Shown: positions 26,835 to 30,438 of the stretch, in pieces
How positions within the stretch are numbered: the first letter of the stretch is position 1
How the letters are laid out: the number at the start of each line of letters is the position of its first letter
Origin: Verrucomicrobiota bacterium
GTDB taxonomy: Bacteria; Verrucomicrobiota; Verrucomicrobiia; Verrucomicrobiales; DEV007
Direction of reading: 5' to 3'
NCBI GenBank assembly: GCA_018970725.1
Contig: JAGWVU010000011.1
Span: 1 to 64,000 of the forward strand
Length of the DNA stretch: 64,000 bases
The notes under the pieces: model-generated
What the model was told of the DNA's origin: nothing
What the model saw: only the letters and a program-made list of their open reading frames with translations
The model's database searches: none
Program-made: the position numbers and the translations under genes

Positions 26835-28310
26835 TCAGTGGAAATAGATCCGGTCCAGAATGAGTTTGATCACGCTTTGCGGCAGTTGCGCGTGATACTC
26901 CAACTCCTCCTGACTGTAGAACGGCCGGGCATCGACGATCCGGCGGGCTAGTTTGGGACCGATTCCCGGCAGCCGCTGCAGTTCCTCGAAAGAGGCGTGA
27001 TTGATGTCGATCGTGGTGTAGTAGGTCCCGTGCCCGTGATGCGGATCATGGTAGGGGTCATGATCATGCCAGTCGTGGTAGGGATCCTGCTCCAGCCCTT
27101 GTCCGGTGGATTCCGGTTGCACCAAGGAATGATCCCCTCCGGAATCAGGCGTTTCGGGAACCGGGGACGACTCCGGACCGGGTTCCGGCTCGGACGCGGG
27201 CAGGCGGGCGAGTTCCTCGAGGCGGCGGGCTTGGTCCTCTTCCCGTTTTTTCCGCTCCGCCTCCGCGCGACGGCGGCGCCCCTTTTCCTGAAACCAGGCG
27301 ATCCAAATGCAGATCTCGTAGAGCAGGACCAACGGCCCCCCCAACAAGATGAGGGTGATCGGGTCCGGCGGGGTCAGCACCGCGGCCACGAAGAGGATGA
27401 TCATGATCGCGTAGGATCGTGAGTTTTTCATCGTTTCGTAGGAGAGCAGCTCCAGCGAAATGAGGACGAAGATGACGACGGGCAATTGGAAGGTCAGACC
27501 GAAGACCACCACCACCTGGGTGACGAACTCGATGTAATAACCGACCCGCCATCCCCCATAAAGTCCGTGCTGCACGTTCCACTCCACGAGCCAGCGGAGG
27601 GCGAACGGCAGACCGATCCGGAACGCAAAGAAGGCTCCGAATAGGAAAAGGAGGCAGGAGGCCGCCAGCGCCGGAAACACCGCTTTCTTCTCGGATTGGC
27701 GGAGCCCGGGCAGAATGAACTCCACCACGAACCAGAGCAAGAGAGGGAGCGCCGCCACGACCGCGGAAAAGAAGACCAGCTTGATCACAATCATGAGGCC
27801 TTCCGAGGGAGTGAAGGTTTCCATGACGAGCACCTGCCGCGTGGAAAGCCGCCGCATGTCCGAGGACTTCACATCCCCCGAAGCCGCCGGGATCGTTCCC
27901 AGAATCATGTCCGTCTTGGCGGTCGCCTCCACGCCGTCGGACAACTGCAACTTCGTGACGCCCACCTCCACGTCCTCCGAAACGACCCGGGCGATCAACC
28001 CGCTCTGCATGAGCACCAGTTCCCCGGCCCGGAAACGCGGTTCCACCACACTGCGTTTGAGATTGAAAATGGCCGAAATGGCGTCGGGCTTCCCGATGCC
28101 GGCCCACTTCACCGGCAACTGGATGAGTTCCACCAGCTGGACATTGAAGACCGCAGCGACCACCACCGTGACAATCACGGTGAGCAGCATCTTCACGAAC
28201 ATGTGCCGCAAATCCTCCAGATGATCGAGGAACGGCTTCTCTTCCGCGTCGAACCCCTCATCCGCGCCTTTGGGCCGCCGCTGCCCCGCTTTCTCGCGCA
28301 GGTGGAACAT
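26835..28310 (-). CDS. tatC: TatC with His-rich linker and C-terminal helix-hairpin-helix domain
   Basis: 491 residues from the chosen ATG (MFHLREKAGQ). The frame stays open upstream to 28412, but that would run into the NUDIX gene. FLDHLEDLRHMFVK begins the TatC core, and six membrane segments follow, with LLLWFVVEFILPGLRQSEKK and VVVFGLTFQLPVVIFVL. The loop between helices 1 and 2 carries ~80 extra residues. After helix 6 comes a basic coiled stretch, a Pro/Glu linker, a His/Asp-rich run (YHDWHDHDPYHDPHHGHG) and a ComEA-like helix-hairpin-helix (INHASFEELQRLPGIGPKLA). It exports folded proteins; Tat substrates (DUF1552, DUF1501) occur in the window. tatA/B are not here. Confidence 0.9.
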   Translation of the reverse strand: MFHLREKAGQRRPKGADEGFDAEEKPFLDHLEDLRHMFVKMLLTVIVTVVVAAVFNVQLVELIQLPVKWAGIGKPDAISAIFNLKRSVVEPRFRAGELVLMQSGLIARVVSEDVEVGVTKLQLSDGVEATAKTDMILGTIPAASGDVKSSDMRRLSTRQVLVMETFTPSEGLMIVIKLVFFSAVVAALPLLLWFVVEFILPGLRQSEKKAVFPALAASCLLFLFGAFFAFRIGLPFALRWLVEWNVQHGLYGGWRVGYYIEFVTQVVVVFGLTFQLPVVIFVLISLELLSYETMKNSRSYAIMIILFVAAVLTPPDPITLILLGGPLVLLYEICIWIAWFQEKGRRRRAEAERKKREEDQARRLEELARLPASEPEPGPESSPVPETPDSGGDHSLVQPESTGQGLEQDPYHDWHDHDPYHDPHHGHGTYYTTIDINHASFEELQRLPGIGPKLARRIVDARPFYSQEELEYHAQLPQSVIKLILDRIYFH

Positions 28311-28387: not shown

Positions 28388-29002
28388 TTACGCGATGAAT
28401 CCGAGAGCGCAAAGTCTTGCGAAAACGACCAGCGAATTCGCATCCACCAACTCGTTGCGCGCGATCATGTCACGAATTTCCCCGATGGTGAACGGCCGGA
28501 CCTCGAGAATATTCTCGCCTCCGTCCGGTCGCAGCCCCGCCCCTGTGGAAATCACCCCCCGGGCCAGAAACAAGTAACAGTGTTCATCCGTAAATCCCAC
28601 CGAACTGAAATAGTGTCCGAGGGAAATCAGTTCCCCCTGCTCCCGGAGGCCATGCCCGGTCTCTTCCTCCAATTCCCGCAAGGCGGCGGCCTTGATGACC
28701 GAGAAATCATCCCGGAAGCGGGGATCATCGATCAGCCCTGCGGGAAACTCCCAGAGCACCCTCTGCACCGGATACCGCTCCTGACGGATCATGAGGAATC
28801 GCCCATCCGGGAGCTGCGGAGCGACCACCGCGCCGGCAGGACGCCGCGAAACCACCCAGGTGACTTCCCCCTTCCGGTTGGAGGTCCGGAACGTGGTCTC
28901 GTTGACCCGGACCCAGCGGTGCTCGAAGAGCGTGGTCTCCGCGACCCGTTCCCAACCCGCCCCTTCCCCCTCGTCCAGCCGGAATGGTTTTCCCCCGTTC
29001 AT
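28388..29002 (-). CDS. NUDIX hydrolase (ADP-ribose pyrophosphatase-like)
   Basis: 204 residues from the ATG that overlaps the argH stop (ATGA). VLWEFPAGLIDDPRFRDDF then AALRELEEETGHG is a Nudix box in which about four extra residues lie between the Gly and the REL part, so the first Glu of GxxxxxE is not in register; REL-EE is intact. Closest in style to ADP-ribose or nucleoside diphosphate sugar pyrophosphatases. Second gene of an argH-NUDIX pair. Confidence 0.85.
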   Translation of the reverse strand: MNGGKPFRLDEGEGAGWERVAETTLFEHRWVRVNETTFRTSNRKGEVTWVVSRRPAGAVVAPQLPDGRFLMIRQERYPVQRVLWEFPAGLIDDPRFRDDFSVIKAAALRELEEETGHGLREQGELISLGHYFSSVGFTDEHCYLFLARGVISTGAGLRPDGGENILEVRPFTIGEIRDMIARNELVDANSLVVFARLCALGFIA

Positions 29003-30369
29003 GCGATGGCGAGCCGGGTTTTCCAACGGGCCAACTCCGCCGCCACCCCGTCCGGAGAGGGCGCACCCGTCGCCCGGCGCGCCTCCAACGCGTTGCGGAC
29101 ATCGAACAAGCCGAAGACATCGGCAGCGAACACCTCGCTGAACGAGCGGAATTCCTCGAGGGTGAGGTCGGGAAATCCCCGGCCCTCCCGCAGCGAAAAG
29201 GCGGTCAGTTTGCCCACCACCTCATGCGCCTGGCGGAACGGGACATGGCGCACCACGAGGTAATCCGCGATGTCCGTGGCCAGAAGAAAAGGGTCGGCCG
29301 CCGCCGCGCGCGTCCGGTCCTCGTTGACCCGCATGGCCCCGACCATTTCCGCAATGACCGGGAGCAGTAGCTTGATCGTGTCCACGGAGTCGAACAACGG
29401 TTCCTTGTCTTCTTGCAAATCTCGGTTGTAGGTCAGCGGCAAGCCCTTGAGGATCGTTAGAAGGCTCACCAGATTTCCCAGCAACCGCCCCGTTTTCCCG
29501 CGGGTCAACTCCGCCACATCCGGATTTTTCTTCTGCGGCATGAGACTCGATCCCGTCGTGTGGGCATCACTCAAGGTCACGAACCCGAACTCTACCGTCG
29601 TCCAAAGGATCAAATCCTCCGCCATCCGGGAAAGGTGGACCCCCAGCAACCCCAGGACGAAGAGCAACTCCGCGACGAAGTCCCGGTCGCTCACCGCATC
29701 CATGGAATTGCGGCTCACGGAATCAAAACCCAATTCCTCCGCCACCGCCTCGCGATCCACGACGATGGTCGAGCCGGCCAAGGCCCCCGATCCCAAGGGC
29801 AGGACATTGAGACGCCGGCGGCAATCGCCCAAGCGACCGGCATCGCGATCGAGCATCTCGACATACGCCAGCAGATGATGAGCGAAGAGCACCGGTTGCC
29901 CGCGCTGCAAATGGGTGTAACCGGGCAAAACCGTGTCCGGATGCCGCGCGCCGACCTCCACCAAAGCCCCCTGCAACGCCCGCAGCGCTCCCTCGATCGC
30001 CTCCGTTTCCTCACGGCAGAAAAGCCGGACATCGAGCGCCACCTGGTCATTCCGGCTCCGGGCCGTATGCAATTTTGCTCCCGCCGCCCCGATCCGCGCG
30101 GTCAGGCTCGCCTCGATGTTCATGTGGATGTCCTCCAAGTCACTGGAGAACGCGAACCCGCCCCGCGCGATCTCGTCCCGGATCTCCAACAAACCGGCCT
30201 CGATCGCCGCCTGCTCCCCGATACTGAGAATTCCGGCCCGGAGCAGAGCCCGGGAATGGGCGATCGAGCCCCGGATATCATGGGCGTAAAGCCGCCAGTC
30301 GAAGGAGATGGACTCCCCCAACCGTCTCACCAAATCGGACGTTTCACCTTCAAAGCGGCCTTTCCACAT
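28999..30369 (-). CDS. argH: Argininosuccinate lyase
   Basis: 456 residues from the ATG at 30369. N-terminal MWKGRFEGETSDLV; HTARSRNDQVALD; the fumarase/aspartase signature GSSLMPQKKNPD, whose Ser lies in the catalytic loop; YNRDLQEDKEPLFDS. Cleaves argininosuccinate to arginine and fumarate in the last step of arginine synthesis. Length is normal and all hallmark motifs are present. Overlaps the NUDIX start by 4 nt. Confidence 0.97.
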   Translation of the reverse strand: MWKGRFEGETSDLVRRLGESISFDWRLYAHDIRGSIAHSRALLRAGILSIGEQAAIEAGLLEIRDEIARGGFAFSSDLEDIHMNIEASLTARIGAAGAKLHTARSRNDQVALDVRLFCREETEAIEGALRALQGALVEVGARHPDTVLPGYTHLQRGQPVLFAHHLLAYVEMLDRDAGRLGDCRRRLNVLPLGSGALAGSTIVVDREAVAEELGFDSVSRNSMDAVSDRDFVAELLFVLGLLGVHLSRMAEDLILWTTVEFGFVTLSDAHTTGSSLMPQKKNPDVAELTRGKTGRLLGNLVSLLTILKGLPLTYNRDLQEDKEPLFDSVDTIKLLLPVIAEMVGAMRVNEDRTRAAAADPFLLATDIADYLVVRHVPFRQAHEVVGKLTAFSLREGRGFPDLTLEEFRSFSEVFAADVFGLFDVRNALEARRATGAPSPDGVAAELARWKTRLAIA

Positions 30370-30438
30370 GGGGCGCGACGCTACACCGCGGGCGCGCAAA
30401 CACAACTCCGGACGCGCCGGGCATGGCCGGAAACCCGG

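What the first reader, a model, noticed from the sequence alone, without database searches (positions are those of the whole stretch)
26835..28310. TatC fused to a His/Asp-rich linker and a helix-hairpin-helix domain
TatC normally ends after helix 6. This one adds a cytosolic metal-binding-like run and a ComEA-type DNA-binding fold, and has ~80 extra residues in the first periplasmic loop. A link between Tat export and DNA or metals is not a known theme.
Basis: partly seen in the sequence, partly recalled or inferred. Interest (0 to 1): 0.6.

Follow-up and report, generated by a model that had tools for sequence, protein, structure and literature searches.

The report
TatC with a docking-domain tail
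In one family of verrucomicrobial bacteria the core protein of the Tat export machine carries a long histidine-rich tail inside the cell, capped by a small folded domain that looks like a DNA-binding domain but has lost the DNA-contacting residues, so it is more likely a docking module for proteins.

Summary
Window 28310-26835 (minus) is one 491-codon ORF: a complete TatC, an 87-residue insert in periplasmic loop 1, a charged helix, a His/Asp-rich run and a C-terminal HHH_3 domain. It is the genome's only TatC. There is no frameshift: 42 of the 67 family genomes with a TatC match read through into the same cap. Capped TatC form one clade (UFBoot 99 / SH-aLRT 96) and the cap is under purifying selection (dN/dS 0.04-0.07). 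The fold is ComEA-like (Z 10.3), but the lysine ComEA needs for DNA binding is basic in 0 of 42 caps, and hairpin glycines are lost in 8 and 23 of 42. This resembles PsbU, a protein-docking use of the fold. Periplasmic-loop inserts are known in other TatC. His-rich TatC tails occur more widely in the order; the cap was seen only in this family. Best reading: a cytosolic docking or substrate-handling arm, possibly doing TatB-like work. All 35 genomes checked have only short TatA-type proteins, but short-tailed species do too. No paper on it was found.

The parts
26835..28310 (-). tatC-HHH gene, 491 aa, ATG start
27333..28226 (-). TatC domain PF00902 (residues 29-326), six-helix core including the loop-1 insert
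   Evidence: fold match to TatC 4b4a Z 22.0
27840..28100 (-). insert in first periplasmic loop (about residues 71-157), this form seen in own genus only; no Pfam match at E<=1; low pLDDT; dN/dS 0.05-0.09
27105..27284 (-). cytosolic linker (residues 343-402): charged helix continuing helix 6 to about residue 369, then Pro/Glu-rich, predicted disordered
27030..27086 (-). His/Asp-rich run (residues 409-427); D413-W414 fall in invariant columns of the 34-row alignment A3
26838..27020 (-). C-terminal HHH_3 cap (residues 431-491)
28388..29026 (-). upstream NUDIX gene, same strand (neighbour, not part of the module)
28999..30405 (-). argH (Lyase_1 + ASL_C2), upstream of NUDIX (neighbour)

Best explanation
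It is the working TatC of this bacterium with a cytosolic arm added: helix 6 runs on as a charged helix, then a flexible His/Asp/Trp-containing linker, then a small HHH cap. Shown by calculation: continuity of the frame, single origin, selection, fold, and absence of the ComEA DNA-contact residues. Inferred: the cap docks on a protein (substrate, assembly factor or translocase subunit) and the His-rich run handles or checks the arriving folded substrate, so the arm works as a receptor or quality-control arm on the side where substrates arrive. It may be comparable to the cytosolic domain and His patch of E. coli TatB, a protein that these genomes appear to lack in long form.
For: One ORF, the genome's only TatC. 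HHH cap under selection close to that of the core: dN/dS 0.044-0.065 against 0.025-0.037. Cap in 42 genomes of 7 genera, one clade, UFBoot 99 / SH-aLRT 96. Fold predicted to be kept when the hairpin Gly is lost: L187 cap pLDDT 83, 2duy Z 11.3. ComEA DNA-contact lysine position basic in 0 of 42, charges 0 to -14, PsbU-like residues at the same positions. An HhH pair of ComE1 binds fibronectin as well as DNA (PMC2601033, passages). TatB's cytosolic domain and its His patch do folding quality control (PMC9436932 section 6). TatA-family proteins of 35 genomes are short, none of the 171-aa TatB type. Conserved short motifs in the capped tails: EHAHL[YF] in 25 of 42, HD..W in 35 of 42.
Against: No partner is known. 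Genomes of the same order with short TatC tails also have only one short TatA-type protein, so the tail is not required where TatB is missing. Own genus has two TatA-type genes. The window's own cap is nearly neutral (-1 over 67 columns) with an intact first hairpin, so DNA binding in this genus is not excluded. A fold shows no function.
Confidence: 0.52

Rival explanations
1. Metal arm: the His/Asp-rich run binds Zn, Ni or Cu and holds metal for, or checks metal loading of, folded metalloproteins before export; the HHH is only a spacer or anchor.
For: 7 His + 5 Asp in 19 residues here; windows with at least 6 His in 30 in 39 of 42 HHH tails, 9 of 15 coil tails, 9 of 50 f2-like and 3 of 4 f82. 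The run is also found where the cap is different or absent.
Against: The linker is the least constrained part (dN/dS 0.10-0.15 where computable). His number varies widely between tails. No metal-related neighbour lies next to tatC except a FUR-family regulator three genes upstream, part of a general block with argH. Nothing on metal binding was measured.
Confidence: 0.22
2. DNA tether: the HHH cap binds DNA and couples the Tat machine to the nucleoid, in line with the first reader's suggestion.
For: ComEA/Tex fold, Z 10.3 and 9.3; hairpin 1 with both glycines in 34 of 42 caps and in the window protein.
Against: ComEA's essential Lys position basic in 0 of 42, K201 position 0 of 42, hairpin-2 Gly lost in 23 of 42 including the window protein, caps mostly acidic.
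Confidence: 0.12
3. Neutral appendage: TatC tails in this order drift in length and composition; the cap is a harmless domain acquired once.
For: Tails vary greatly (2 to 446 aa); relatives carry a coil or acidic tail in place of the cap.
Against: HHH retained in every member of the clade whose C-terminus could be read, selection near that of the core, fold-packing residues conserved.
Confidence: 0.12

Closest known systems
TatC (PF00902, TIGR00945; A. aeolicus structure 4b4a)
   Same: Complete six-helix core, Z 22.0 to 4b4a; genome's only TatC
   Different: About 150-residue cytosolic tail with HHH cap; 87-residue loop-1 insert
N. salsuginis and M. xanthus TatC with large periplasmic-loop inserts (PMC13323110; PDB 9e02, 9e03)
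   Same: Large insert in a TatC periplasmic loop
   Different: Sequence relation of the insert not tested; the passages read mention no folded cytosolic tail
ComEA HHH domain (PDB 8dss, 2duy)
   Same: Fold and Pfam family HHH_3
   Different: Essential DNA-contact lysine absent, second hairpin degenerate, sits on a translocase tail
PsbU of photosystem II
   Same: HHH fold with a hydrophobic residue at the ComEA lysine position and degenerate hairpins; part of a membrane protein complex
   Different: Separate extrinsic protein in another compartment (recalled)
E. coli TatB cytosolic domain (PMC9436932)
   Same: Helices plus a histidine patch on the cytosolic side of the Tat receptor
   Different: TatB is a separate PF02416 protein; the TatC tail has no PF02416 match

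Membership tests
TatC | PF00902 / TIGR00945 over curated cut-off | tested here: met
   172.4 bits vs 25.1; 140.5 vs 132.7
TatC | six-helix TatC fold | tested here: met
   AF2 model, 4b4a Z 22.0, rmsd 2.0 over 223 residues
TatC | twin-arginine signal peptide binding and export | not testable with these tools
   needs experiment
ComEA-type HHH DNA-binding domain | HHH_3 sequence family and fold | tested here: met
   E 7e-12; 8dss Z 10.3, 2duy Z 10.3
ComEA-type HHH DNA-binding domain | Lys at Gs K166 / Bs K164, needed for DNA binding | tested here: not met
   Leu in the window protein; basic in 0 of 42 caps; need for the Lys from PMC9747964 section 10
ComEA-type HHH DNA-binding domain | two intact G-h-G hairpins | tested here: not met
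   hairpin 1 intact, hairpin 2 lost in the window protein; lost in 8 and 23 of 42
ComEA-type HHH DNA-binding domain | binds double-stranded DNA | not testable with these tools
   needs gel shift
TatB (cytosolic quality-control domain) | PF02416 transmembrane + amphipathic helix | tested here: not met
   no PF02416 match in P0001 at E<=1
TatB (cytosolic quality-control domain) | cytosolic helices followed by a His patch that screens folding | tested here: inconclusive
   helix to residue 369 then His run; no functional test
TatC with large periplasmic-loop insert | large insert in a periplasmic loop | tested here: met
   residues 71-157; loop-2 insert in sister genera instead

The most novel reading that the evidence does not exclude
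TatB's job has been moved onto TatC: in a lineage without long TatB, TatC grew its own cytosolic quality-control arm (helix, histidine-rich sensor and an HHH docking cap that has lost DNA binding), a Tat translocase with a folded cytosolic receptor domain built into TatC.
Probability: 0.2. Interest if true: 0.78.

Novelty: new variant of a known kind. Interest (0 to 1): 0.5.

Why it matters
How Tat judges that a cargo is folded is an open question, and TatC is usually thought to have almost no cytosolic domain (recalled). An order in which TatB of the long type was not seen, and in which TatC carries a long, partly conserved and in one family capped cytosolic arm, makes it possible to test whether quality control can sit on TatC. 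It also shows an HHH domain kept for its fold after losing DNA contacts, a warning against reading every HHH as DNA binding.

Tried and rejected
DNA tether: rejected as the main reading by residue, hairpin and charge tests. The charge test alone is weak: within Pfam boundaries 9 TatC caps have median -3 and 21 other HHH_3 domains of the same nine genomes median -1, Mann-Whitney p 0.014.

Frameshift or split gene: rejected. Recent chimera or assembly error: rejected by one clade over 7 genera.

Double DPYH motif in other proteins: a strict DNA pattern hit 1 of 72 family genomes, the window only, so it was too strict to say anything about other genes.

SAP-like tail of L057: E 0.011, below the Pfam cut-off, left as a hint. 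A YajC-like fold for the loop-1 insert was a guess of mine; Pfam gave nothing and AF2 was mostly under pLDDT 50 there; the insert was not folded alone. Tail-for-TatB replacement as a strict rule: not supported, since genomes with short TatC tails also have one short TatA-type protein.

Literature: TatC with helix-hairpin-helix, with histidine-rich, with Verrucomicrobi, with C-terminal extension: no paper on this tail in the listings. One search listed 10 of 40 papers, none on Tat tails by title. Subscription papers are not held.

Rows dropped: one search uses 82 rows, that is the 98 less 26 (20 near-copies, 6 long branches) plus 10 new ones. One search uses 16 of the 21 other domains (two Tex-like and three partial or odd ones left out) plus two of the own genome. 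In one search, 4 of 8 f3-like tails could not be parsed, and several named loci were put in the f2-like group without a known family. In the family, 67 of 74 genomes matched: 42 with cap, 2 cut by a contig end before it (L073, L083), 21 without, 1 without but cut (L037), 1 not read (G399).

Full report
WHAT IS THERE. Window 28310-26835 (minus strand) is a single open reading frame of 491 codons with an ATG start. Pfam finds TatC at 29-326 and HHH_3 at 432-480; NCBIfam's tatC model is passed. It is the only TatC of the 4.9 Mb assembly. Between the two domains lie a helix that continues helix 6 to about residue 369, a Pro/Glu-rich stretch and the His/Asp run 409-427. AlphaFold2 gives the TatC core and the cap high confidence (cap about 95) and most of the loop-1 insert and linker below 50. 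VIA-align: core to 4b4a Z 22.0; cap to ComEA 8dss and 2duy Z 10.3, Tex 9.3, PsbU 6.7. TatC ends on the cytosolic side (established topology, recalled), so the tail is taken to be cytosolic.

IS IT REAL. Same-genus genomes match over the full length at 91 and 84%. Nei-Gojobori dN/dS between the three: core 0.025-0.037, HHH 0.044-0.065, loop-1 insert 0.046-0.092, linker 0.10-0.15 (not computable for one pair). So the cap is selected and in frame, and the linker is looser.

HOW WIDE. Of 74 genomes of the same family searched, 67 had a TatC match. In 42 of these the tail ends in the HHH cap (genera g1, g199, g205, g206, g208, g211, g213), 2 are cut by a contig end before it, 21 end otherwise, 1 ends otherwise but is cut, 1 was not read. 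Order-wide, a profile of the capped TatC in 386 genomes gave matches through the cap only in this family among the rows listed; the list was cut, so separate HHH hits elsewhere were not all seen. Fourteen further TatC of other families read after that search have no HHH match. On the TatC core tree the capped rows are one clade: 41 of 98 rows, SH-aLRT 92; 28 of 82 rows, UFBoot 99 / SH-aLRT 96, one change in 100% of 200 bootstrap trees. The sister group has an amphipathic coil (SGPTEELKR...) in place of the cap; one relative (L057) has a weak SAP-like end. Neighbourhood: the window has fur, argH, NUDIX, tatC in this order; L155 shows the same order, L130 fur-argH-tatC, and L129 NUDIX-tatC (relatives' neighbours named by eye).

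THE HIS-RICH TAIL IS WIDER THAN THE CAP. His-rich windows (6 or more His in 30) occur in 39 of 42 capped tails, 9 of 15 coil tails, 3 of 7 other family tails, 9 of 50 f2-like and 3 of 4 f82 tails. EHAHL[YF] occurs in 25 of 42 capped and 4 of 4 f82 tails and in none of the other groups (shuffled mean 0.00). HD-x(0-2)-W is in 35 of 42 capped tails against 2.6 by shuffling (all). These rows are related, so counts are not independent events. In the capped group, shuffled tails often also reach the His-rich window (mean 21 of 42), because the tails are His-rich throughout.

DOES THE CAP BIND DNA. ComEA of G. stearothermophilus loses DNA binding with K166A, and B. subtilis K164A and K199A lose transformation more than 100-fold (PMC9747964 section 10). 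In an alignment of 42 caps with ComEA, PsbU and 18 other HHH_3 domains, the K166 position is Leu 24, Met 15, Asp 2, Ile 1 in the caps; it is basic in 6 of 18 others. The K201 position is basic in 0 of 42 caps. The K195 position is basic in 2 of 42 and acidic in 28. The K199 position (Gs numbering) is basic in 17 of 42, which does not fit a full loss. The second Gly is lost in 8 of 42 (hairpin 1) and 23 of 42 (hairpin 2). Caveats: the Thermus ComEA-related protein 2duy also has Leu at the K166 position, and HhH domains bind DNA largely through the backbone. Net charges of 42 caps run from 0 to -14, median -4. A cap with a lost hairpin Gly (L187) is still predicted to fold, pLDDT 83, 2duy Z 11.3. 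The fold is kept and most DNA contacts are not.

WHAT IT MAY DO. E. coli TatB's cytosolic domain checks folding, and a patch of three histidines after its helices is needed for that (PMC9436932, abstract and section 6). In the own genome and nine capped relatives, TatA-family proteins number one or two and are short (about 63-102 aa); in 25 further genomes of the order they also number one or two, with open frames up to 161 codons stop to stop. No TatB-length protein was seen in these 35 genomes; a TatB too diverged for the model would be missed. The arm on TatC therefore sits where a TatB domain would act. But short-tailed TatC genomes lack long TatB too, so this remains a hypothesis, not a correlation.

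LOOP INSERTS. Loop 1 carries an 87-residue insert in own genus; most capped sister genera have none there and an insert in loop 2 instead; f2 TatC has another loop-1 insert. [quoted passage not shown] salsuginis and M. xanthus, the latter forming a trimer (PMC13323110, passages). This part of the finding is a known kind.

NOVELTY. In PMC3827258, a TatC diversity survey (passages only), the words C-terminal, extension and fusion have no occurrence in the main text. Searches for TatC with helix-hairpin-helix, histidine-rich, Verrucomicrobi and C-terminal extension listed no report of this tail. New variant of a known kind, moderately interesting, function open.

Noticed in passing
L125 (G000:C79:59160-59330): By eye a secreted thermonuclease-like protein with a C-terminal HHH_3 domain in the own genome (nuclease family not tested); HHH fusions recur in this lineage.
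   Followed up: partly
L240, L241, L242, L243 (family f82): TatC tails without HHH, three of four His-rich, all four sharing the motif EHAHL[YF] with the capped tails.
   Followed up: partly
L041-L049, L051-L056: TatC tails ending in an amphipathic Lys/Glu repeat (EELK..LREELK) instead of the HHH cap; clade sister to the capped one.
   Followed up: partly
L057:859-2388: TatC tail with a SAP-like end, E 0.011, below the Pfam cut-off.
   Followed up: partly
L058-L098 (capped sister genera): Insert of about 100 residues or more in periplasmic loop 2, with a conserved end next to helix 4.
   Followed up: no
L118 (G086, other family of the phylum): TatC with an unrelated C-terminal extension of about 236 residues.
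   Followed up: no
L122, L123 (G000:C61): Two adjacent short TatA-type genes on another contig than tatC; 7 of 9 capped relatives searched have only one.
   Followed up: partly
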